Source of the DNA: Pedobacter faecalis
Lineage (GTDB): Bacteria; Bacteroidota; Bacteroidia; Sphingobacteriales; Sphingobacteriaceae
Direction of reading: 5' to 3'
NCBI RefSeq assembly: GCF_030182585.1
Contig: NZ_JARXOW010000002.1
Location: forward strand, 310,001-374,000
Length of the DNA: 64,000 nucleotides
The notes under the pieces were generated by a model that was not told the origin of the DNA, searched no databases, and saw nothing but the letters and a program-made list of their open reading frames with translations. Shown one piece after another: positions 5,222 through 15,035 of the stretch. Position numbers and translations under genes: made by a program. Numbering within the stretch: the stretch's first letter is position 1; every line of letters begins with the position of its first letter.

Positions 5222-5809
5222 TTATTTATGACGTCCTTCCAGGTTAAGCCCCAGGTCGGCCAAAGTTTTTCCTTTTTCCCGGAGCAGTACCAGCAGGTGA
5301 AAGATCAGGTCAGAACTCTCATTGATAAAGTCCGAGTCTGTTTCCGCAAGTGCAGCAATCACCGTTTCCACACCTTCTTCGCCCACTTTCTGGGCAATCT
5401 TATTTAAGCCTTTGTTGCGCAGCTTATTTACATAAGACTCAGCAGAAGGGTTTTCGTACCTGTCGGCAATGATTTGTTCCAGCTTAAAGATGAAGTTATG
5501 GTTATAGTCCGTTTTAAAACAGCTGCGTGAGCCCGTATGGCAGGTCGGGCCTACAGGGCTAACCTTAATCAGCAGGGTATCGTTATCGCAGTCTATATGC
5601 GTTTCTTTCACAAACAGGAAATTGCCGCTTTCCTCGCCTTTGGTCCACAACCGCTTCTTGCTGCGGGAAAAGAAAGTGACTTTACCCTCCGCCTGCGTCT
5701 TATCCCATGCTTCCTGGTTCATATAACCCAGCATGAGCACTTCAAGTGTCTTTTCATCCTGTATAATCACCGGAACCATGCCGCCGGTCTTTTCAAAATC
5801 TATCTTCAT
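5222..5809 (-). CDS. hisIE: bifunctional phosphoribosyl-AMP cyclohydrolase / phosphoribosyl-ATP pyrophosphatase
   Basis: Histidine synthesis steps 2 and 3: PR-ATP is hydrolysed to PR-AMP, then the ring is opened to ProFAR. Residues about 1-105 are the HisI cyclohydrolase domain, with the zinc/catalytic motifs [10 protein letters not shown] and CHTGSRSCF. Residues about 110-190 are the helical HisE (MazG-like) domain, with the acidic motif [12 protein letters not shown] and [13 protein letters not shown]. At 195 aa it has the usual length of a HisIE fusion. Its ATG overlaps the hisF stop by one base (TAATG), which indicates translational coupling. Confidence 0.96.
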
Positions 5810-6564
5810 TACAGCCTTACAGGTATGTTGTGTTTCTTTAGTTCTTTCTTTAATTCCGGAATAGGTATCTCACCAAAATGAAATACAGATGCCGCAAGCG
5901 CAGCATCAACGCCAGTTTTCTGGAACACCTCTGTAAAATGTTCCATCTTGCCGGCTCCGCCCGAAGCAATAACCGGAATGTTTATTGAACGCGATATTTT
6001 ATCGAGCAGCGGACAGTCAAATCCGTTCTTCGTGCCGTCATGATCCATCGAAGTCAGTAGAATCTCGCCCGCACCCAGGCTTTCCGCCTCAATAATCCAG
6101 TCTTCCGTTTGCAGCTCCGTAATCAATCTGCCTCCGTTCAGGTGTACCATGTTCCGGCCGTCAACCAGCTTAGTGTCTACGGCAACCACCACAAACTGTA
6201 CACCGAAAGCATTTGCCAGTTCTGCAATCAGCGAAGGATCCCTGACCGCCGCAGAATTAATGCTGATCTTGTCGGCCCCCGAATTCAGCAGGGCCTCAGC
6301 ATCAGCAACGGAAGTAATCCCTCCGCCTATGGTAAACGGAATATTCAGTTGCCTGGCTACCGCCTTCACCATCTCAATGGTCGTACCCCGGCGTTCATGT
6401 GTAGCCGTAATGTCCAGGAATACCAGTTCATCAGCACCCTGCTGCGCGTATTGCCAGGCCAATTCCACAGGGTCACCGGCATCCTTCAGGTCAACAAAAT
6501 TAACGCCTTTTACAGTACGGCCGTCCTTAACATCCAGGCAGGGAATAATGCGTTTGCTTAACAT
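5809..6564 (-). CDS. hisF: imidazole glycerol phosphate synthase, cyclase subunit
   Basis: HisF uses ammonia delivered by HisH to convert PRFAR into imidazole glycerol phosphate and AICAR. The 251-aa TIM barrel is full length. It starts [21 protein letters not shown], with the catalytic Asp in CLDVKDGR, and has the second phosphate/catalytic region in [15 protein letters not shown] and the phosphate-binding [10 protein letters not shown]. It lies 21 nt downstream of hisA and overlaps hisIE by one base. Nothing is missing from the family's key motifs. Confidence 0.97.
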
Positions 6565-6585: not shown

Positions 6586-7335
6586 CTACAAGGAGGTCAT
6601 CTGTTTCAGGTTCCATTGCTTAATCTCCTCAATAGAGATGCGATTTTCGTAGATGGCTTTACCCACCACTACCGAGCGGATATCCAGCTTAGCCAGTTCT
6701 TCAATATCCGCCATGGAACTGATTCCGCCAGATGCGATCAGCTTGATAAAAGGAGAGTGGTCGAGCAGTTTTCTGTACAGATCTACCGCCGCACCGCCAA
6801 GCTTGCCGTCTTTATTGATGTCCGTGCACAAAAATCTGAAAAAGCCCAACTGCAGGCACTTATCCACATAGTCCATCAGCTTGATTGGCGAGCTTTCCAT
6901 CCAGCCGCTATACTTGATCACCTCATCAAGCACATCAATAGCGATCACGATGCGGTTTGCATAGTCATATTTCTTGCCCACTTCCGTGCTCAGTTCTTTC
7001 AGAAAGTTAGGATTGGTAATGGCCTGCGTACCCACGATCACCCGGTGTATTCCGGCATCAAGCAAGTCTGTCACCTGCTGTATGGTACGTATACCCCCCC
7101 CATACTGCACCCGCATGTCCGTTTTCTTAATGATATCAAATAAAGTCTTTTGATTGCTGAAATCGCCTTTGGCGCCATTCAGGTCAATGATGTGTATAAA
7201 CTCGGTACCGTTAGAGCGGTACGTATTAATCATGTCTTCTATCGAAACATCATACACTGTTTTCTGATCGTAGTCGCCCTCTCTTAGCCGGACCACCTTT
7301 CCGTCCAGTATATCAATTGCAGGAATTATATACAT
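6586..7335 (-). CDS. hisA: ProFAR isomerase
   Basis: HisA isomerises ProFAR to PRFAR (histidine pathway step 4). The 249-aa TIM barrel starts MYIIPAIDILDGKVVRL with the catalytic Asp in PAIDILDGK. It carries the phosphate-binding QYGGGIRTIQQV and the C-terminal LIASGGISSMADI followed by VVVGKAIYENRI. It sits between hisH (22-nt gap) and hisF (21-nt gap) on the same strand, as expected for the HisH-HisA-HisF block. An eight-C run in the plus strand near 7096 codes for the conserved Gly-Gly-Gly. Confidence 0.97.
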   Translation of the reverse strand: MYIIPAIDILDGKVVRLREGDYDQKTVYDVSIEDMINTYRSNGTEFIHIIDLNGAKGDFSNQKTLFDIIKKTDMRVQYGGGIRTIQQVTDLLDAGIHRVIVGTQAITNPNFLKELSTEVGKKYDYANRIVIAIDVLDEVIKYSGWMESSPIKLMDYVDKCLQLGFFRFLCTDINKDGKLGGAAVDLYRKLLDHSPFIKLIASGGISSMADIEELAKLDIRSVVVGKAIYENRISIEEIKQWNLKQMTSL

Positions 7336-7357: not shown

Positions 7358-7975
7358 TTACAGCCGCTCCGGGCATTCTAATTTTGAAAAGTTCTTCAAT
7401 AAACGTTCGCCGGCTGCCCCGGATTTTTCAGGATGAAACTGCACCCCGTAAAAGTTATCTTTCTGCACCCCCGCAGAGAAAGGCAGGCCATACTCCGCTG
7501 TAGCGATGTCAAAAATAGGGTTATATTCAATAAAGTACGAATGCACAAAATAAAATTGTGCATCAGGCGCAATGCCCTCAAACAGCGAATTGTTATGGTG
7601 GGCAACGTTATTCCAGCCCATATGCGGAATCTTAATGCCTTTTTCACGGTCAAACAAACGCGTTCTTACCGGAACCACAGCCATCATATCAGCATCCCCC
7701 TCTTCAGAGTGGGCGGTGAGCAGTTGCATGCCAACGCAAATACCCAGAACAGGCTTTTTTAATGCCTTAAGCGGCTTAATCAGTCCCGTTTGCTCCAGCT
7801 TCTTCATTGCGGCGCCGGCATGGCCCACACCAGGAATAATAATGTGCGTATACTTTTCCAGATCAGCTTCCTCATTCACCATCCCGTAGGCAATCCCTTG
7901 TCGTTCCAGTGCCGAAGTCAGGGAAAAGATATTTCCCGCACCATAGTTTACAATCCCGATCATATCGTTAGTCAA
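7358..7975 (-). CDS. hisH: imidazole glycerol phosphate synthase, glutamine amidotransferase subunit
   Basis: HisH hydrolyses glutamine and channels ammonia to HisF. The class I amidotransferase fold is complete: MIGIVNYGAGNIFSL at the N-terminus, nucleophile Cys in LGICVGMQLL, and catalytic His/Glu in GVQFHPEKSG. The longest frame begins with TTG at 7975, but an ATG four codons later at 7963 gives MIGIVNYGAG, the usual family N-terminus, so that start is more likely (201 aa). It follows hisB by about 17-30 nt. Converting PRFAR requires both HisH and HisF, and both are present in this operon. Confidence 0.95.
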   Translation of the reverse strand: MTNDMIGIVNYGAGNIFSLTSALERQGIAYGMVNEEADLEKYTHIIIPGVGHAGAAMKKLEQTGLIKPLKALKKPVLGICVGMQLLTAHSEEGDADMMAVVPVRTRLFDREKGIKIPHMGWNNVAHHNNSLFEGIAPDAQFYFVHSYFIEYNPIFDIATAEYGLPFSAGVQKDNFYGVQFHPEKSGAAGERLLKNFSKLECPERL

Positions 7976-7992
7976 TACACAAAGATAAGCAA

Positions 7993-9126
7993 TTATAATA
8001 CCCCTTTTGTACTTGGCAGTATCAGCTTCTCAGGATCCCGCTTTATCGCCATTTTAATGGCTTTTGCAAAGGCCTTGAAAATCGCCTCTATCTTATGATG
8101 CTCATTCTCACCCTCAGCTTTAATATTCAGGTTACACTTTGCCGCATCGGTAAACGATTTGAAGAAATGATAGAACATCTCCGTCGGCATATCGCCGACC
8201 TTTTCCCGTTTAAATTCCGCATCCCATACAATCCATGGACGCCCCCCGAAATCAATCGCCGCCTGGGCCAGACAATCGTCCATCGGCAAACAGAATCCGT
8301 ATCTTTCCAGGCCGAGTTTATTGCCAATGGCTTTTGCAAAAGCCTCACCCAGTGCAATACCCGTGTCTTCTATCGTATGGTGCTCGTCGATGTGCAGGTC
8401 GCCCTCCGTTTTAATGCTCAGGTCTACACTGCCGTGACGGGCAATCTGATCCAGCATATGATCAAAGAAATGCAGACCGGTAGAAACTTCCGCTTTTCCG
8501 GTACCGTCAAGATCAATAGCGATGGCTATTTTCGTCTCATTGGTATTACGCTCATGCTTTACCCGCCGGCTTCCCGCTTTCAGCATCGTGTAAATATCTT
8601 CCCATTTTTGCGTTTCCAGGGAAATATGCGCGCCCAGGGACTCCGCTTTCTCCAGCATCTCGCCCGATCCTAGGGCGTCATTATTACGCAGCCATATCGC
8701 TTTTGCGCCAAGGTTCTTCGCCAGGATCACATCATTGAGCCTGTCGCCAATCACATAAGAATTCGGCAGGTCAAAACCCTCGCCCAGAAAATGCTGCAGC
8801 AAACCCGTGTTCGGCTTGCGCGTAATTGCGTTCTCATTCGCAAAGGTCTTGTCAATAATCACCTCACTGAATACTACGCCTTCGCCCGCAAAGGTGTCCA
8901 TGATGAAATTATGCACCGGCCAGAAATTCTCCTCCGGATGTGAATCCGTTCCTAAACCATCCTGATTGGTCACCATCACCAGCGTGTAGTCAAGCTCTGC
9001 CGCAATCCTCGACAGGTAATACAAAGCCCGCGGATAAAATTCCAGCTTGGCAAATGAGTCAATCTGCTCATCTTCCGGTTCTTTGATCAGCGTGCCGTCA
9101 CGGTCTATAAAGAGTACTTTTTTCAT
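7993..9126 (-). CDS. hisB: bifunctional histidinol-phosphatase / imidazoleglycerol-phosphate dehydratase
   Basis: The protein catalyses steps 6 and 8 of histidine synthesis. Residues about 1-165 are a HAD phosphatase with the nucleophile motif DRDGTLI, the second motif VMVTNQDGLG, and GDRLNDVILAKNLGAKAIWL. Residues about 190-377 are the manganese-dependent dehydratase, with HFFDHMLDQIARHG, HHTIEDTGIALG and ENEHHKIEAIFKAFAKA. The fused form (377 aa) is common in Bacteroidota and gamma-proteobacteria. It lies 1 nt after hisC. Confidence 0.96.
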   Translation of the reverse strand: MKKVLFIDRDGTLIKEPEDEQIDSFAKLEFYPRALYYLSRIAAELDYTLVMVTNQDGLGTDSHPEENFWPVHNFIMDTFAGEGVVFSEVIIDKTFANENAITRKPNTGLLQHFLGEGFDLPNSYVIGDRLNDVILAKNLGAKAIWLRNNDALGSGEMLEKAESLGAHISLETQKWEDIYTMLKAGSRRVKHERNTNETKIAIAIDLDGTGKAEVSTGLHFFDHMLDQIARHGSVDLSIKTEGDLHIDEHHTIEDTGIALGEAFAKAIGNKLGLERYGFCLPMDDCLAQAAIDFGGRPWIVWDAEFKREKVGDMPTEMFYHFFKSFTDAAKCNLNIKAEGENEHHKIEAIFKAFAKAIKMAIKRDPEKLILPSTKGVL

Positions 9127-9127
9127 G

Positions 9128-10192
9128 TTAAATATCTTTTAGCGCTGCCAGCAGCGTTTTGTTCTCTTCCGGTGTCCCAATCGTAATCCTCAGGCAGCCC
9201 TCGCAAAGTGTTACCTTAGAGCGATCGCGGATAATAATCCCCTGATCTACCAGCGCATTATATGTTCCGGTCGCATCCTTAACTTTAGCCAGTATAAAAT
9301 TAGCATCTGAAGGATAAACATTAAGCACGCTGTCCAGCTCCTGCAAGTCCGCAATCAGTTGCTCCCGGTCGGCCACCGTAACCCTGATCCATTCATTCAC
9401 CTGTTCAATGTTTTTCAGCGCATTTAAGGCAATGTCCTGAGTAGCTTGATTGATGTTGTACGGAGGCTTCACCTTGTTAAAAATATCGATCACCTGTCTC
9501 GATGCAAAAGCCATTCCCAGCCGCAAAGCCGCAAGTCCCCACGCCTTTGAGAAGGTCTGGAGCACAACCAGGTTCGGGTATTCCGTCAGCTCCTGGATAA
9601 AACTGCGCTGCTTGGCGTAATTGATATAAGCCTCGTCGATTACCACAAGACCCTTAAAATTAGCCAGTATGGTTTCGATATCTGTACGGATGATTGAATT
9701 ACCCGTCGGATTGTTTGGTGAGCAGATAAAGATCACTTTCGTATGCTCATCGATCGCTTCTGCAATGCCGTCAAGGTCCAGTTGAAACTGGGGCGTAAGG
9801 TTCACCCGGCGCACCTCCACATTGTTGATGCCTGCCGAAACCTCATACATGCCGTAAGTTGGGGGGAGGATGATCACATTGTCCACCCCAGGCTCGCAAA
9901 AAGCCCGGTAAAGAAGGTCTATCGCCTCGTCACTTCCGTTGCCCAGGAAAGTATTCTCAATCGGCACCCCTTTAATCTTGCTGATCGCATCCTTCAAATC
10001 CAGTTGCAGGGGATCAGGATAACGGTTGTAGTCCTTTTGCAAAGCACTGCTCAGCTCACCGTTCAGCGGTGAACCAAAGCTGTTTTCATTGGCGTCCAGA
10101 AATACACTGGCCTGGCCCTTGTATTCGTCCCTCGCCGTAGAGTAAGGCTTCAGGTTCTTTATGTTTTCTCTCTGTAAACTCGTTATGTCCAT
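9128..10192 (-). CDS. hisC: histidinol-phosphate aminotransferase
   Basis: A PLP-dependent class II aminotransferase (step 7: imidazole acetol phosphate to histidinol phosphate). The 354-aa sequence has LDANENSFGSP near the N-terminus, the substrate/PLP loop GNGSDEAIDLL, SPNNPTGN, the PLP-stacking VVIDEAYINYA, and the Schiff-base lysine in TFSKAWGLAALRLG. C-terminal LRITIGTPEENK is standard for the family. It is packed between hisD (2-nt gap) and hisB (1-nt gap). Confidence 0.96.
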   Translation of the reverse strand: MDITSLQRENIKNLKPYSTARDEYKGQASVFLDANENSFGSPLNGELSSALQKDYNRYPDPLQLDLKDAISKIKGVPIENTFLGNGSDEAIDLLYRAFCEPGVDNVIILPPTYGMYEVSAGINNVEVRRVNLTPQFQLDLDGIAEAIDEHTKVIFICSPNNPTGNSIIRTDIETILANFKGLVVIDEAYINYAKQRSFIQELTEYPNLVVLQTFSKAWGLAALRLGMAFASRQVIDIFNKVKPPYNINQATQDIALNALKNIEQVNEWIRVTVADREQLIADLQELDSVLNVYPSDANFILAKVKDATGTYNALVDQGIIIRDRSKVTLCEGCLRITIGTPEENKTLLAALKDI

Positions 10193-10194
10193 GG

Positions 10195-11484
10195 TTAAAT
10201 GTCTTTTAATCGTATGCTCACCGCGTTTCTGTGCGCCTGCAGGCCTTCAGCCTCCGCAAGTGTCTCTACGGTTTGCCCAATCTGCCCCAGTCCCTGCCGG
10301 TCGATATACTGAAAAGTGATTTTCTTAACGAAAGCGTCGAGTGATACCCCTGAGTATGCTTTTGCAAAGCCGCTTGTCGGAAGCGTATGGTTAGTTCCCG
10401 AAGCATAGTCGCCCGCGCTCTCCGGCGTCAGGTTGCCCAGAAATACCGAACCCGCATTGCGGATCAGCGGCAGCAGTTTCTCATACTTTTCTGAAGCCAC
10501 AATGAGGTGTTCCGGCGCGTACACATTGCTGAATTCCATACCCTGTTCGAGGCTATCGACCAGTACGGCATACGAGTTGGCAATCGCTTTAGCGGTTACA
10601 TCCCTCCTTGGTAAGACGGCCAGCTGCGCCTCCAGTTCCTTCATTGTCTCGTCTAGTATGGAACTTGAGGTAGCCACCAAAATTGACTGAGAATCAGTAC
10701 CATGCTCTGCCTGTGCAAGCAGGTCGGATGCTAAGTATGACGGATTGGCAGTCTCATCCGCAAGTACCAAAACCTCCGATGGACCAGCAGGCATATCAAT
10801 CGCAGTTCCGGCGGCCGACTGTACCAATTGTTTAGCCTGAGTCACATAGCGATTGCCCGGCCCGAAGATCTTGTAAACCTGGGGTACAGTCTCCGTACCG
10901 AAGGCCATCGCTGCTACAGCCTGCGCGCCGCCGATGAGGTATATTCGCTCAATACCGAGCTTCATCGCCACATAGGCCACATAGCAGTTCGTCTTGCCAT
11001 CCTTTTGCGGAGGAGAACATACCACAATCTCCCGGCAGCCTGCCAGCGTTGCCGGAACGCCTAGCATCAGGAAAGTACTCGGCAGTACAGCCGATCCGCC
11101 CGGGACGTACAAACCAACACGATCTATCGCTCGGCTTTCCCTCCAGCAGGTTATCCCGGGCATCGTGTCAATCTTCTCCTCGCGGCAAGCCTGTGCAGCG
11201 TGAAATGCCCGGATGTTTTCGTAAGCGATATCGATAGCCCGTTTGCCCTCTGCGGGAATAGAAGCTGCTATCATTTCAAGCTCTTCAGGACCCAACCAAA
11301 GACGCTCCATTTCCACCCTGTCAAACTGTTTGGCATAGTCGAACAAGGCCGTGTCACCTTCCACTTTTACCCGCTTTACAATAGTTTCAACCTGTTGCTG
11401 TATACTGGCATCGTCTTCAAGCTGGCGTAGGCAAATCGATTCAATTTCCTCTTTAGATAAATCAGTATATCTGTAGATTTTCAA
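10195..11484 (-). CDS. hisD: histidinol dehydrogenase
   Basis: A zinc- and NAD-dependent enzyme that oxidises histidinol to histidine in two steps. The 429-aa protein has the expected GPGNRYVTQAKQLV, the DMPAGPSEVLVLAD signature, QAEHGTDSQSILVA with zinc ligands, and the C-terminal SGTNHTLPTSGFAKAYSG. The frame starts with TTG (MKIYRYTDLSKEE); no in-frame ATG upstream is better placed. The 35-nt gap to hisG is the largest in the hisG-hisD-hisC-hisB segment. Confidence 0.96.
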   Translation of the reverse strand: MKIYRYTDLSKEEIESICLRQLEDDASIQQQVETIVKRVKVEGDTALFDYAKQFDRVEMERLWLGPEELEMIAASIPAEGKRAIDIAYENIRAFHAAQACREEKIDTMPGITCWRESRAIDRVGLYVPGGSAVLPSTFLMLGVPATLAGCREIVVCSPPQKDGKTNCYVAYVAMKLGIERIYLIGGAQAVAAMAFGTETVPQVYKIFGPGNRYVTQAKQLVQSAAGTAIDMPAGPSEVLVLADETANPSYLASDLLAQAEHGTDSQSILVATSSSILDETMKELEAQLAVLPRRDVTAKAIANSYAVLVDSLEQGMEFSNVYAPEHLIVASEKYEKLLPLIRNAGSVFLGNLTPESAGDYASGTNHTLPTSGFAKAYSGVSLDAFVKKITFQYIDRQGLGQIGQTVETLAEAEGLQAHRNAVSIRLKDI

Positions 11485-11519: not shown

Positions 11520-12371
11520 TTATGCAATGATTTTTTCTATCGGCATCACCATTATTCCCTGTGCACCGGCTGCCTTTAAAAGGTTTATTTTCTCCCAGAA
11601 ATCATGCTCTGCGATGACTGAGTGCACAGCCACCCAATCCTCGTCAAACAAAGGCACTACGGTCGGACTTTTCACGCCTGGCAGCAGGTCCACGATTTTT
11701 TGCAGGTTGCTTTTTGCCACGTTCAATACCACATATTTTGTCTCCTTGGCGCGTAGTACAGAACGTATCCTTTGCAGGAGTTCCTGAACTTCCGGCAGCA
11801 GGTCAGACCCCTCCTTGCCAATCAGCACGGCTTCCGATTTCATCACTTCCGAGAAAGGTTTCAGACCATTGCTTTTCAGTGTTCCGCCGGTCGACACAAT
11901 ATCGCAGATCGCATCGCTTAACCCCAGGCCCGGGCCGATCTCTACCGATCCGGATATGGTGCGCACTTCAGCATCCACATTATTTTCCTTAAGGTACTTC
12001 TCCAGGATAACCGGGTAGGAGGTTGCAATCGCCTTGCCCTTCAACTGGCTCACCTCGGTAATGCTGCTGTCGTTAGGCACGGCAATCTTCAGGGTGCATT
12101 TACCGAAGCCAAGCCGCTGCAGGTAGGTCACCTCAGCGCCCGCCTCTACAATCACATTTTCACCAACAATACCCAGATCGGCAATGCCGTCCTGCACATA
12201 TTCCGGGATATCATCATCACGAAGGAAGAGTATCTCCAGCGGAAAATTGGTGACAGAGGATATTAACGAGCTCTTGTAGTTCTCGAAAGACAAACCACAA
12301 TTTTTAAGGATCTCTACTGATTTTTCGTTTAATCTACCCGATTTCTGGATAGCTATTTTGAGTGTTTTCAC
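11520..12371 (-). CDS. hisG: ATP phosphoribosyltransferase, long form
   Basis: Commits PRPP and ATP to histidine synthesis. At 283 aa it is the long form: two periplasmic-binding-like catalytic lobes (MKTLKIAIQKSGRLNEKS, DDDIPEYVQDGIADLGIVGE, the PRPP-binding region DIVSTGGTLKSNGL) plus the C-terminal HisG_C regulatory domain (about 210-283) that binds histidine for feedback inhibition. No hisZ is therefore needed. The start is GTG; an in-frame TAA four codons upstream excludes a longer form. The gene is preceded by a 134-nt leader that contains hisL, so it is likely controlled both by feedback and by attenuation. Confidence 0.96.
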   Translation of the reverse strand: MKTLKIAIQKSGRLNEKSVEILKNCGLSFENYKSSLISSVTNFPLEILFLRDDDIPEYVQDGIADLGIVGENVIVEAGAEVTYLQRLGFGKCTLKIAVPNDSSITEVSQLKGKAIATSYPVILEKYLKENNVDAEVRTISGSVEIGPGLGLSDAICDIVSTGGTLKSNGLKPFSEVMKSEAVLIGKEGSDLLPEVQELLQRIRSVLRAKETKYVVLNVAKSNLQKIVDLLPGVKSPTVVPLFDEDWVAVHSVIAEHDFWEKINLLKAAGAQGIMVMPIEKIIA

Positions 12372-12448
12372 TATATGCTTTTAGAATTATTGAATTAATG
12401 AACAAGAAATAAAGTCGAAACAAGTTTTGAAGTACAAAACATTACATA

Positions 12449-12505
12449 TTACATCGCCGCCAGGCGATGATGAAAATGTAAGTGATGGTTCAAAATTGTA
12501 TTCAT
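12449..12505 (-). CDS. hisL: his operon leader peptide
   Basis: On the minus strand an 18-codon frame encodes MNTILNHHLHFHHRLAAM: ATG at 12505-12503, TAA at 12451-12449. Five of the seven codons from 7 to 13 are His (HHLHFHH). It lies between a promoter match (12555-12584) and hisG, 77 nt before the hisG GTG. Histidine-codon clusters in short leader ORFs ahead of his operons are the hallmark of attenuation (as in enterobacterial HisL). The last His codon begins the 5' arm of a 7-bp hairpin, so a ribosome stalled at the His codons would occlude that arm. I could not find a strong U-tract terminator, so the exact read-out is open. Confidence 0.85.
   Translation of the reverse strand: MNTILNHHLHFHHRLAAM
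12452..12469 (-). promoter_or_regulatory. hairpin overlapping the hisL end (attenuator element)
   Basis: A perfect 7-bp stem, CATCGCC / GGCGATG, with loop TGGC. Read on the minus strand, the 5' arm starts at the final His codon and the 3' arm ends at codon 18. A second CATCGCC occurs at 12548-12554, just after the promoter -7 element, and could pair with the same 3' arm if transcribed. A weaker hairpin (GTTTTG / CAAAAC) followed by a T-rich stretch lies at about 12415-12441. These look like parts of an attenuation switch, but the fold is not proven. Confidence 0.5.
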
Positions 12506-12554
12506 AACTTATTTAAGTTCCTTATCAACAATGACTAGCATCTCCGAGGCGATG

Positions 12555-12584
12555 CAAATATAAAAAACGCTTTGTGAAATCAAA
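12555..12584 (-). promoter_or_regulatory. his operon promoter (Bacteroidota type)
   Basis: Reading the minus strand, TTTG at 12584-12581 and TATATTTG at 12562-12555 are separated by 18 nt. They match the Bacteroidota primary sigma consensus (TTTG at -33, TAnnTTTG at -7). Transcription would start at about 12550, leaving roughly 45 nt before hisL. It is the only promoter of this quality upstream of the tightly packed his genes. Confidence 0.65.
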
Positions 12585-12688
12585 ACAGCTTTTCACAATT
12601 AAATCGGCGGAATCTCTAATTCACCCAGGTACTGACTATTGCCGGTATGCTTGCCATATCCCGACGCAAAGTTCTTATCTTAGCGTCG

Positions 12689-13471
12689 ATGGTCACACTA
12701 GGCAAAGGTGAATATCTTGGGGAGAACATAACGCGGTTTGAGTCAGACGGCCTTACGATTGTTGATACGAGCTACAGGCAGCCCGTATATTCAGGCTGGC
12801 ATTCGCACCATTGTGCGCACCTCACGCTTGTTCTCAATGGCGGTAACCTCGAAAAGCGTCCACGGAGGGAGTTGCAACTCAGCAGCGGGCAAGTGGTTTT
12901 CTACCACCATGGGGAACTTCACCGAAATGATCATACGCTGTTTCCTTCGCGCAACATCAATCTTGAACTGAGTGAGGATTTTTTTTTAATGAGCGGACTA
13001 ACGCCGATACAATTGGAAAAAGCTGTAGCAGGACGGGGGTTACAGGCGGCCGATATTATCAGAGTTTTACATGAACTTTTTTATCCCGGTGCCGATCTGC
13101 AGCAGACGGCTACAATGATCCTTGGGGCTGCGGCAAGTGCCCCCCTGGGAAGGTTGGAGCCAGATTGGGTTGCTGTGGTACGGACGTTTCTGGAGGATAA
13201 CTGGTACAGATGGCCTGGCCTAGTTGAAATTGCGGAGGCTGCAGGCGTACACCCGATTACCATCTCAAAGTCATTCAGCCGATATTTTAGCGGAACGCTA
13301 AGTTCATATACCCGAAAATTGAAGGTTGGCCGGGCCGTTGCACTGATCAGGTCGGGCAAATATTCGCTCACTACTGTCGCCTTAATGTGTGGGTTTGCTG
13401 ACCAAAGTCATTTTATCAGGGCGTTTAAAGCGAATACCGGCCTCCTGCCCAAGGCTTTTGAACGTTGGTAA
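12689..13471 (+). CDS. AraC family transcriptional regulator
   Basis: The N-terminal half is a cupin-like sensor (GWHSHHCAHLTLVLNGG, SGQVVFYHHGELHRN), and the C-terminal about 100 residues hold two helix-turn-helix motifs (LVEIAEAAGVHPITISKSF, LTTVALMCGFADQSHFIRAFKA). I prefer the ATG at 12689. A longer frame from 12647 is possible, but its first 14 codons cover an inverted repeat (CGACGC at 12662-12667, GCGTCG at 12683-12688) and a TATCTTAG -7-like box, which look non-coding. The gene diverges from hisL and precedes the serine hydrolase by 61 nt, so regulation of that neighbour is possible. The ligand is unknown. Confidence 0.85.
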   Translation: MVTLGKGEYLGENITRFESDGLTIVDTSYRQPVYSGWHSHHCAHLTLVLNGGNLEKRPRRELQLSSGQVVFYHHGELHRNDHTLFPSRNINLELSEDFFLMSGLTPIQLEKAVAGRGLQAADIIRVLHELFYPGADLQQTATMILGAAASAPLGRLEPDWVAVVRTFLEDNWYRWPGLVEIAEAAGVHPITISKSFSRYFSGTLSSYTRKLKVGRAVALIRSGKYSLTTVALMCGFADQSHFIRAFKANTGLLPKAFERW

Positions 13472-13532: not shown

Positions 13533-15035
13533 ATGAAAAAAATTGTTCTGCTTTTATCGATGCTTGGTCTGTTTGGAAATGTCGCCGCGCAACATTTACC
13601 CGCTAGGCTTGATAGCTTCTATTCCAGCCTGGCGGCCGAGGGCCGCTTGAACGGGGGTGTACTGGTGGCGTCCAAAGGACAGGTGCTTTATGAGCGATAT
13701 TTTGGTTGGGCCAGCATACAACATAAGCGACGTAATGAAGCGGCTACAGCATTTCAGCTGGCCTCTCTATCAAAACCTTTTACTGCTGTCGCCATTATGC
13801 AACTGGCTGAAACCGGAAAGCTGAATCTGAGTGAGCGCTTCTCCCATTACTTCCCTCAGTTTCCATACAAAGATATTACGATCGCGCAATTGCTTTCTCA
13901 CAGTTCCGGGCTTTCAGATCAGGATTTGTCGGACGCCCAGGCAGCCTTTGAACGCAGGCTGGGGCGCCGACACTGCAACGCCGACCTCGTAGCTATGCTT
14001 GCTGAAGCGAAAGTGAAGTTAAAGCTAAAGCCTGGTGAAAAGTGGTGGTACAGCAATCTTGGCTTCGAATTGCTAGCTACTTTGGTCGAAAAGGTGTCTG
14101 GTCTCGGTTTTCCACATTATCTGAATAGGTATATATGGAGCCCTGCGGGCATGGAGCATACCTATCTCCGCATGTCGCAAAAAGACGAGAGAATTTGGCA
14201 GGCACGCAATTATGACTACCCTAAAAGGTATGCACCATACCGTGAAAGGGTAGACAATAGTGGGGGCGACTATACGGAACGCGCTTACGGGCATAGTAAC
14301 ATTGTCAGCACATGCCGGGATCTGCTCAAATTTAGCCAGGCATTTTTCGGCGGACGTTTGGTGTCCCCGGCTATGGTGACTCATGCGACGACAGGCACCA
14401 GTTTACAGAACGGTCGGCCAAATGCCGTATGGATGAACATTGGAAGTATGGGCAGCACCGTAAACGGCTTGGGATGGTTTGTCTTCAACCAAAGCCCCAG
14501 AGCGGGAACGTTGTTCCATGCGGGCGGAATGTCGGGTGCGGTCACTATCCTTTTGTTTGATCCCAGCTCGGCGTCAACGGTGATCATTCTAGACAATATG
14601 GGCAGTGAAGGAATTTATAATAATGCCTTGAACGGTCTACGGCTGCTGAACGGGCGGCAGGTTGTACCCTCAAAAAAGAATCTTGCCCGCTTGTACGGTC
14701 GCTGGCTCATGACAATGAAGGCTGACGCTGCAGCGAAACTACTCATGAAGCTTCGCAATGACACGCTTAACTATACCCTAAACGAAAACGACATAAACAA
14801 CCTGGGGTACGCTCTGCTGCATGATAAGATTCAGCAAAAGGCTCTTGAGGTCTTCAAGATCAACTGTTTTTTATTCCCGGCAAGCGACAATGCCTTTAAC
14901 AGTTATGCTGAGGCTTTGGAGCAAATCGGGCAGCAGGCCGATGCGCTTGATATGTACCGGAAGTCGGTACAACTTAACCCCGACAACCAGGATTCGTTAA
15001 AGGCACTTCGGCGCCTTGAAAGTACCACACAATAA
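13533..15035 (+). CDS. serine hydrolase, beta-lactamase/class C PBP-like, with C-terminal TPR
   Basis: An N-terminal signal peptide (MKKIVLLLSMLGLFGNVAAQ) indicates export. The class C serine hydrolase triad is present: SLSK (Ser78, Lys81), YSN near residue 171, and HAGG near residue 327. After the about 350-residue catalytic domain comes a helical C-terminal part that ends with TPR-like repeats (ALEVFKINCFLFPASDNAFNSYAEAL... ALDMYRKSVQLNPDNQ). Such proteins are D-aminopeptidases, esterases or PBP-like enzymes; real beta-lactamase activity cannot be inferred. It follows an AraC gene on the same strand. Confidence 0.88.
   Translation: MKKIVLLLSMLGLFGNVAAQHLPARLDSFYSSLAAEGRLNGGVLVASKGQVLYERYFGWASIQHKRRNEAATAFQLASLSKPFTAVAIMQLAETGKLNLSERFSHYFPQFPYKDITIAQLLSHSSGLSDQDLSDAQAAFERRLGRRHCNADLVAMLAEAKVKLKLKPGEKWWYSNLGFELLATLVEKVSGLGFPHYLNRYIWSPAGMEHTYLRMSQKDERIWQARNYDYPKRYAPYRERVDNSGGDYTERAYGHSNIVSTCRDLLKFSQAFFGGRLVSPAMVTHATTGTSLQNGRPNAVWMNIGSMGSTVNGLGWFVFNQSPRAGTLFHAGGMSGAVTILLFDPSSASTVIILDNMGSEGIYNNALNGLRLLNGRQVVPSKKNLARLYGRWLMTMKADAAAKLLMKLRNDTLNYTLNENDINNLGYALLHDKIQQKALEVFKINCFLFPASDNAFNSYAEALEQIGQQADALDMYRKSVQLNPDNQDSLKALRRLESTTQ

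What the first reader, a model, noticed from the sequence alone, without database searches (positions are those of the whole stretch)
12449..12505. Unannotated his leader peptide with five His codons
An 18-codon frame (MNTILNHHLHFHHRLAAM) sits between a good Bacteroidota promoter and hisG. Five His in seven codons is far beyond chance for a random 18-codon frame and occurs exactly in front of a his operon. Ribosome-mediated attenuation is well known in Proteobacteria; in Bacteroidota it is much less described.
Basis: partly seen in the sequence, partly recalled or inferred. Interest (0 to 1): 0.72.

Follow-up and report, generated by a model that had tools for sequence, protein, structure and literature searches.

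The report
Terminator-less histidine operon leader switch
In front of this soil bacterium's histidine-making genes lies a tiny histidine-rich gene that probably works as a sensor of histidine supply, and its RNA appears to switch the operon on and off without the usual transcription stop signal.

Summary
On the minus strand, 12505-12449 encodes MNTILNHHLHFHHRLAAM*, between a Bacteroidota-type promoter and a complete his operon. It is beyond chance (1 of 829 ATG frames in the window; 1 of 69,483 in simulated sequence) and conserved: 162 of 164 distinct Sphingobacteriaceae hisG upstream regions have a short ORF with at least 4 His in 8 codons. 'His leader peptide' is well supported; classical transcription attenuation is not. 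A terminator between leader and hisG was found in 0 of 164, against 8 of 8 trpE and 10 of 10 pheA leaders tested in the same genus and 51 of 66 hisG regions tested from other families. Instead the leader folds into a long rod: a 5'UTR/pre-hisG helix (P1), a codon 4-6/H2-arm helix, and a tip hairpin on the His-His-Arg codons; a small hairpin, H2, excludes it. Comparative tests support both folds. A ribosome modelled on the first His codon raises H2 from 0.24 to 0.88 and lowers the cost of opening the hisG region from 10.6 to 7.6 kcal/mol. Most likely translational attenuation; Rho is the main rival. New variant of a known kind; all mechanism is in silico.

The parts
12555..12584 (-). promoter: TTTG (12584-12581), 18 nt, TATATTTG (12562-12555); predicted start near 12549
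   Evidence: sequence; T[AG]nnTTTG motif upstream of 141 of 144 family leaders; pattern itself recalled
12505..12542 (-). P1 5' arm: 5'UTR up to the first base of the leader start codon
   Evidence: duplex with 12417-12374, -17.6 kcal/mol; native vs species-swapped test
12449..12505 (-). His leader ORF MNTILNHHLHFHHRLAAM*
12489..12495 (-). segment A (leader codons 4-6, UUUUGAA), pairs with 12431-12425 in the rod
12476..12481 (-). segment M left (UUACAU), pairs with 12447-12442
12452..12469 (-). H1 hairpin CAUCGCC/GGCGAUG at the His-His-Arg codons, tip of the rod
   Evidence: one pair changes G-C to A-U in 3 of 18 sequences
12442..12447 (-). segment M right (AUGUAA)
12424..12440 (-). H2 hairpin GUUUUG-UACUU-CAAAAC, the alternative to the rod; weak (-2.9 kcal/mol) and without a clean U-tract, so not a usual terminator
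12425..12431 (-). segment E (UUCAAAA): overlaps the 3' arm of H2, or pairs with segment A
   Evidence: alignment column 82 covaries with column 75 (H2) and column 15 (A:E)
12374..12417 (-). P1 3' arm, immediately upstream of the hisG start
11520..12371 (-). hisG, GTG start
   Evidence: NCBIfam TIGR00070
5222..11484 (-). rest of the operon: hisD 10195-11484, hisC 9128-10192, hisB 7993-9126, hisH 7358-7975, hisA 6586-7335, hisF 5809-6564, hisIE 5222-5809

Best explanation
A His-tRNA sensing leader that regulates by ribosome stalling without an intrinsic terminator, most likely by translational attenuation of hisG. With enough histidine, the first ribosome finishes the 18-codon leader and leaves; the leader RNA zips into a rod (P1 + A:E + M + H1) that reaches from the leader's own start to the region just upstream of the weak GTG start of hisG, so hisG is poorly translated (and the rest of the operon probably suffers polarity). 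When His-tRNA is short, the ribosome waits on a His codon (7, 8, 10, 12 or 13). At codons 7-8 it physically blocks segments A and M; at 12-13 it blocks M and H1. Segment E then pairs locally in H2 and the rod cannot close; P1 alone, bridging a large loop around the ribosome, is weaker and hisG can be initiated. Shown by sequence or computation: the ORF, its conservation, the absence of terminators, comparative support for both folds, and the computed switch. Inferred: the transcription start, stalling, and that P1 limits hisG translation.
For: Leader conserved in 162 of 164 distinct loci (>=4 His in 8). Covariance model R1 gives one match in each of 19 of 19 same-genus genomes, each directly in front of hisG, and none in 12 of 12 genomes of other families (the search scores at most 124 candidates a genome). 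Terminator after the leader: 0 of 164 family loci; trpE 8 of 8 and pheA 10 of 10 same-genus leaders tested, ilvD 4 of 4 with a leader. P1: native duplex mean -10.68 vs -6.59 kcal/mol when partners are swapped among 29 representatives, 0 of 20,000 permutations as good; A:E -7.12 vs -4.91, 0 of 20,000; non-cognate pairs of the same RNAs differ by about 0.9 only, though not null (P5:E 306, A:P3 39 of 20,000). Covariation score H1+H2 0.242 vs shuffled 0.100 (0 of 500; best slid 0.080), rod 0.196 vs 0.099 (0 of 500; best slid 0.103). Stall model on 126 leaders, A site at the first His: H2 0.24 -> 0.88, rod pairs 29.8 -> 13.0; cost of opening hisG -35..+9 10.61 -> 7.63 kcal/mol, lower by >=1 in 106 of 126; with the A site one codon on 8.39 (93 of 126), at the last His pair 8.62 (81 of 126). 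P1 3' arm centre tied more closely to the hisG start (sd 3.5) than to the leader stop (sd 5.7), n = 23. hisG start TTG 88, GTG 40, ATG 14, unclear 2 of 144; 125 of 128 non-ATG starts have no in-frame upstream ATG before a stop.
Against: Predicted accessibility of hisG -20..+12 does not change on stalling (0.55 in both), and P1 mostly persists (15.0 -> 11.8 to 13.7 pairs). In 14 loci with 100-319 nt between leader and hisG, the best P1 duplex starts 30-68 nt after the leader stop, and in 13 of 14 ends 22 nt or more before the hisG start. P1 is weaker than -6 kcal/mol in 6 of 29 representatives (L054, L108, L109, L126, L150, L163) and H2 was not found in L108, L146, L195. Against dinucleotide shuffles P1 reaches z < -2 in only 15 of 29. 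Two of the five covariation measures are not above shuffles (H1+H2: pairs changed on both sides 52 of 500, further pair types 217 of 500; rod: 77 and 116 of 500), A:E is paired in only 62.7% of cells, and shuffles ignore relatedness. hisD of this operon probably also starts with TTG, so a weak start codon is not special to hisG. The segment between H2 and hisG has more C than G in 26 of 29, which would also suit Rho. The 30-nt footprint is an assumption; the ribosome's bulk is not modelled.
Confidence: 0.55

Rival explanations
1. Rho-dependent attenuation: the same stall-controlled RNA switch decides whether Rho can load on the C-rich, G-poor stretch between H2 and hisG, so that transcription, not translation initiation, is the regulated step.
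For: C exceeds G in 26 of 29 representatives between H2 and hisG (C 140, G 53 in all); no intrinsic terminator after the leader; P1 stays near the leader where hisG lies further away; Rho was proposed for terminator-less cys leaders in Actinobacteria (PMC1262725, passages).
Against: The free stretch is short (leader stop to hisG is mostly 55-85 nt); low G is also what an unstructured AT-rich leader shows; no Rho signal could be tested; the rod would cover most of the leader in the state that should terminate.
Confidence: 0.2
2. Classical transcription attenuation with an unusual, weak AT-rich terminator (H2 plus U-tract).
For: In many Pedobacter H2 is followed by CTTTTTTCC; 43 of 137 H2-like hairpins have >=6 T in the next 8 nt. 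In a wider scan four of 164 family loci (L044, L111, L160, L184) have an H1-based stem with a T-rich tail.
Against: Mean H2 stability -3.2 kcal/mol against about -10 to -23 for most terminators found in other families; 94 of 137 lack the T run. Stalling is predicted to favour H2, so H2 as terminator would switch the operon off in starvation. The same genus uses strong terminators for trpE and pheA.
Confidence: 0.08
3. The rod or H2 is mainly a site for a protein or RNase (mRNA stability), with the leader peptide as modulator.
For: The H2 loop UAC and the sequence GUUUCUACGUGAA recur in several genera beyond pairing needs (by eye); long base-paired rod.
Against: No protein candidate was sought or found; the conserved His run argues for codon sensing; pairing explains much of the conservation.
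Confidence: 0.1
4. Chance ORF or fortuitous His-rich frame.
For: None beyond the lack of experimental data.
Against: Chance estimate and conservation across the family.
Confidence: 0.01

Closest known systems
his leader / classical ribosome-mediated transcription attenuation (E. coli, Salmonella hisL; recalled)
   Same: short ORF with a run of His codons between promoter and hisG; two exclusive RNA folds switched by a stalled ribosome
   Different: no intrinsic terminator after the leader; long-range helix joins the leader's 5'UTR to the region before hisG; no Rfam match at the leader
hisG and other amino-acid leaders of Flavobacteriaceae (PMC9723704, passages read) and the terminator-type his leaders found here in other Bacteroidota families
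   Same: 5' element or His-rich leader peptide in front of hisG, same phylum
   Different: those found here mostly have a GC-rich hairpin plus T run (18 of 18 tested in the unnamed family f20); the Sphingobacteriaceae have none
LEU element of Actinobacteria (PMC1262725, abstract and passages read)
   Same: leader peptide, base stem that involves the start region of the structural gene, alternative folds, no terminator described in the passages
   Different: there the Leu codons themselves pair with the Shine-Dalgarno box, and the paper doubts leader-peptide control; here the 5'UTR pairs upstream of hisG and the His codons are in the switchable part
Polycysteine leaderless ORFs of mycobacteria (Canestrari 2020, not held; seen only in the reference list of PMC9094748)
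   Same: amino-acid codon run that attenuates an operon (title); without terminator (recalled)
   Different: leaderless ORF, different amino acid
erm/cat translational attenuators (search listing only; otherwise recalled)
   Same: stalled ribosome frees a sequestered start region
   Different: respond to antibiotics rather than to charged tRNA; local hairpins rather than a rod that includes the leader's own 5'UTR

Membership tests
Ribosome-mediated transcription attenuator (his/trp type) | leader ORF with run of regulatory codons upstream of the matching operon | tested here: met
Ribosome-mediated transcription attenuator (his/trp type) | leader ORF lies inside the transcript | tested here: inconclusive
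   promoter motif upstream in 141 of 144; start site not mapped
Ribosome-mediated transcription attenuator (his/trp type) | mutually exclusive RNA folds, choice set by a ribosome at the regulatory codons | tested here: met
   in silico only:
Ribosome-mediated transcription attenuator (his/trp type) | intrinsic terminator before the first structural gene | tested here: not met
   window; 0 of 164 distinct family loci after the leader, (0 of 144)
Translational attenuator with leader peptide | start region of the structural gene sequestered in the default fold | tested here: inconclusive
   P1 arm typically about -30 to -12 of hisG, opening cost 10.6 kcal/mol; but the start codon region is about half unpaired in both states
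Translational attenuator with leader peptide | stalling releases the start region | tested here: inconclusive
   2 to 3 kcal/mol lower on average, >=1 kcal/mol in 81 to 106 of 126 by stall position; P1 persists in part
Translational attenuator with leader peptide | induction by starvation acts on translation of the structural gene | not testable with these tools
   needs reporters
Rfam families (including a His leader family, recalled) | match at gathering score | tested here: not met
   Searches (window; L001, L015, L124, L127, L128, L130): no match at the leader; only sub-threshold matches to unrelated families

The most novel reading that the evidence does not exclude
A whole bacterial family replaced its ancestral terminator-type his attenuator by a translational switch in which the leader peptide's own ribosome-binding region is the anti-start-site of hisG, so that the two genes mutually lock each other and a ribosome stalled on His codons breaks the lock, while the trp and phe operons of the same cells keep classical transcription attenuation.
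Probability: 0.42. Interest if true: 0.66.

Novelty: new variant of a known kind. Interest (0 to 1): 0.52.

Why it matters
Leader-peptide control of amino-acid operons is a textbook model built on terminators. Here the same logic appears to run without one across a family, beside classical versions in the same genus, which gives a natural comparison of transcriptional and translational output from one sensing principle. Bacteroidota initiate translation largely without Shine-Dalgarno pairing (recalled), so a structure-based switch of initiation would be informative there. The element is short, apparently single-copy, covarying and without an Rfam match, so it could become a new RNA family and an annotated small protein.

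Tried and rejected
Rfam scans gave nothing at the leader above gathering score; the weak hits are to unrelated families. A promoter/terminator consensus scan found no terminator in 12300-12700. H2 as a usual terminator: rejected on stability, missing T runs and wrong direction. Direct change of hisG start-codon accessibility on stalling: not seen, so the translational reading rests on the wider window. A consensus fold of 27 Pedobacter-like leaders gave only H1, four pairs of M, H2 and a 3-pair helix, not P1 or A:E, with changes on both sides in 4 of 19 pairs; P1 does not align by sequence, hence the swap test. P1 controls on trpE and pheA leaders of the genus showed no or little native advantage (trpE -9.56 vs -10.45, pheA -12.24 vs -11.84, seven each), but his in eight such close genomes shows only a modest one (-13.25 vs -11.64), so this control is weak. 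My first terminator comparison scanned 330-350 nt in the controls but only the leader-hisG interval in the family; one search repeats it on the interval after the leader for all. Scanned over 330 nt, 31 of 164 family loci (22 at -8 kcal/mol) do have a hit, nearly all upstream of the leader; four (L044, L111, L160, L184) are H1-based. ilvD of the window's own genome (L248) has no leader or terminator, nor do L250 and L254-L256; L227 (trpE) did not fit the script's coordinates and was left out; the homoserine dehydrogenase loci did not reach a gene start and told nothing. Rows dropped: of 195 family loci, 33 duplicates and 18 that failed the strict ATG/first-His rule were left out of the 144, 18 more (spacing, promoter or short 5'UTR) out of the 126 used for folding, and six P1 duplexes weaker than -6 kcal/mol out of the 23 used for positions. 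The A1 alignment used 18 sequences: the window and 17 of the 19 representatives (L108 and L128 left out by me). The 66 loci of other families are 26 that the searches returned and 40 that I picked from the listed matches, mostly better-scoring ones; the many low-scoring matches there (family f32 and others) were not examined.

Full report
What is there. On the minus strand, between a Bacteroidota-type promoter (TTTG, 18 nt, TATATTTG; pattern recalled) and hisG, lies an 18-codon ORF, MNTILNHHLHFHHRLAAM* (12505-12449). Downstream is a complete his operon, hisG-D-C-B-H-A-F-IE. hisG starts with GTG at 12371. The hisG protein is 100% identical to that of Pedobacter deserti SYSU D00382, so the window is from Pedobacter.

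More than chance. Of 829 ATG frames of 10-40 codons in the window, this is the only one with at least five His in eight codons; in 60 simulated windows 1 of 69,483 frames reached that. I collected 195 hisG upstream regions of the family: 25, 26, 80 named records, 60 that I chose from the remaining matches and 4. The named ones are mostly Pedobacter, with Mucilaginibacter, Olivibacter and Daejeonella, all Sphingobacteriaceae. 164 are distinct; 162 of these have a short ORF with at least 4 His in 8 codons and 142 at least 5. One of the two exceptions, L185, probably has no leader. Among the 60 chosen regions the leader (at least 4 in 8) occurs in 19 genera. In 85 of 144 leaders the pattern is HHxHxHHR; the second and fourth His of it vary between CAC and CAT, as expected for a coding sequence.

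No terminator. I scanned the interval from leader end to hisG for a stem with at least three G-C pairs followed by a T run: 0 of 164 distinct family loci have one at -6 or -8 kcal/mol. The same scan after the leader finds one in 8 of 8 trpE and 10 of 10 pheA leaders of Pedobacter and in 4 of 4 ilvD regions that have a leader (a ninth trpE, from another family, also has one). In 66 hisG regions of other families, 51 have one at -8 kcal/mol (52 at -6; one, L316, is doubtful) and 62 have a His-rich short frame, some of which may be chance; all 18 of family f20 have both. Those without are f38 (4 of 4), f15 (3 of 6), f25 (2 of 2), f44 (2 of 2), f24 (1 of 2), f29, f40 and f57 (1 of 1 each). Over 330 nt, 31 of 164 family loci show a hit, nearly all upstream of the leader, four of them built on H1. 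The trpE and pheA leaders of the window's own genome (L232, L292) look like textbook attenuators. So the missing terminator is a property of the his leader in this family, not of the organism.

What replaces it. The minimum-energy fold of the window's leader is one long rod (-35.2 kcal/mol, z -4.1; for relatives). Its parts: P1 joins the 5'UTR up to the leader start codon with the stretch just before hisG; A:E joins leader codons 4-6 with the 3' arm of a small hairpin H2; M joins UUACAU with AUGUAA; H1 is a hairpin of the His-His-Arg codons with the end of the ORF. H2 (GUUUUG-UACUU-CAAAAC here; GUUUCUACGUGAAAC in several other genera) is exclusive with A:E. To test the long-range helices without an alignment I compared native arm pairs with pairs swapped between 29 leaders under 78% identity: P1 -10.68 against -6.59 kcal/mol and A:E -7.12 against -4.91, both 0 of 20,000 permutations. 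Non-cognate controls from the same RNAs differ by about 0.9 (306 and 39 of 20,000), so they are small but not null. Against dinucleotide shuffles P1 is moderate (mean z -2.03, below -2 in 15 of 29). On an 18-sequence alignment the covariation score is 0.242 for H1+H2 (0.100 shuffled, at most 0.080 slid) and 0.196 for the rod (0.099 shuffled, at most 0.103 slid), 0 of 500 shuffles each; but the numbers of pairs changed on both sides and of further pair types are not clearly above shuffles (52 and 217 of 500; 77 and 116 of 500), and shuffling ignores relatedness. Column 82 is the telling one: it is C or G in step with column 75 in H2 (8 G-C, 8 C-G, 2 unpaired) and partly with column 15 in the leader ORF (6 G-C, 5 C-G, 7 unpaired), which is what two exclusive partners of one base should show. 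A covariance model of the core gives one match in each of 19 same-genus genomes, directly in front of hisG, and none in 12 genomes of other families (at most 124 candidates scored in each).

How it would work. In 126 leaders I blocked 30 nt around the P site (an assumed footprint). With the A site at the first His, H2 rises from 0.24 to 0.88 and rod pairs fall from 29.8 to 13.0. The cost of opening hisG -35..+9 falls from 10.61 to 7.63 kcal/mol, by at least 1 in 106 of 126; stalls further on give 8.39 and 8.62 (93 and 81 of 126), and a ribosome initiating on the leader 5.35. The P1 3' arm is centred 18.5 nt before the hisG start (sd 3.5) and 49.8 nt after the leader stop (sd 5.7; n = 23). hisG starts are TTG or GTG in 128 of 144, 125 of these without an in-frame upstream ATG. 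I therefore favour translational attenuation: rod closed means hisG off, ribosome stalled on His means rod open and hisG on.

What speaks against it. The accessibility of -20..+12 does not change and P1 partly persists with a stalled ribosome. In 14 loci hisG begins 100-319 nt from the leader, yet the best P1 duplex stays near the leader and in 13 of 14 ends 22 nt or more before hisG; in several the TTGAAA or TTGAAC context remains at the usual distance. P1 is weak in several, mainly Mucilaginibacter-like, leaders. hisD probably also starts with TTG. C exceeds G before hisG in 26 of 29, which leaves Rho open. Nothing here was measured in cells.

What is known. PMC9723704 (passages) reports strong clues for leader-peptide attenuation before amino-acid operons of F. 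psychrophilum and a 5' element before hisG present in other genera of Flavobacteriaceae. PMC8305728 on his genes of this superphylum has no occurrence of 'leader' in its main text, and the one attenuation passage concerns S. enterica and E. coli. PMC7366714 mentions leader-peptide-like sORFs in B. thetaiotaomicron (passages). PMC4833913 reports a distance peak of leader genes in Bacteroidetes among others (passages). PMC1262725 (passages) describes the LEU element. The listings showed no description of this family's leader; the library holds open-licence papers only, listings were cut, and I read only the papers named here, in passages. Rfam has no match at the leader.

Verdict. Observation confirmed; leader peptide near certain (about 0.93, my estimate); terminator-less RNA switch likely (about 0.8); translational output the best guess (about 0.55).

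Noticed in passing
L330, L331, L332, L333 (family f38, unnamed): His-rich leader ORFs (GTG start in three of four) begin, by eye, only a few bases after a promoter-like element, so these may be leaderless mRNAs, and they have no terminator before hisG: possibly another terminator-less his leader type.
   Followed up: partly
L215, L217, L220 (family f15): Leaders ending in HHFHHSS* whose last codons and stop form a TTCCTC/GAGGAA hairpin, resembling H1, without a GC-rich terminator; the other three f15 loci (L027, L210, L317) have a normal terminator.
   Followed up: partly
L160, L167, L168, L182, L188 (genus g20): hisG begins 140-319 nt from the leader; at the usual distance a TTGAAA or TTGAAC context remains and, by eye, opens a frame of 4-11 codons in L160, L167 and L168 and a longer one in L182 and L188, while P1 near the leader is kept.
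   Followed up: partly
L232, L292, L252: Pedobacter trpE, pheA and ilvD have leader peptides (MINNTHTWQWRR.., MNNITTYWFGYFYYFSKSRD, MNLNTNIISNLIIVISQKRGGNRCV) followed by canonical terminators.
   Followed up: partly
L018, L021, L039, L088 and other Pedobacter loci, about 200-230 nt before hisG, upstream of the promoter: A palindrome TGGCAAATTAAGTGCCA recurs just upstream of the his promoter (as a false terminator hit); it could be an operator. It is not in the window's own sequence by eye.
   Followed up: no
window 12424-12440 and H2 of other genera: H2 keeps a UAC loop in most and, outside Pedobacter, nearly the same sequence GUUUCUACGUGAA in many genera; pairing alone does not explain this.
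   Followed up: no
window 12554-12537: The predicted 5' end carries GCATCGCC...GATGC; GCATCGCC could pair with the right arm of H1 (GGCGATG), a further alternative fold in this species.
   Followed up: no
window 12647-13471 and 13533-15035, plus strand: A divergently transcribed AraC-like regulator (only a sub-cutoff NCBIfam hit; AraC-like by eye) and a serine hydrolase resembling class C beta-lactamases/AmpH below cut-off.
   Followed up: no
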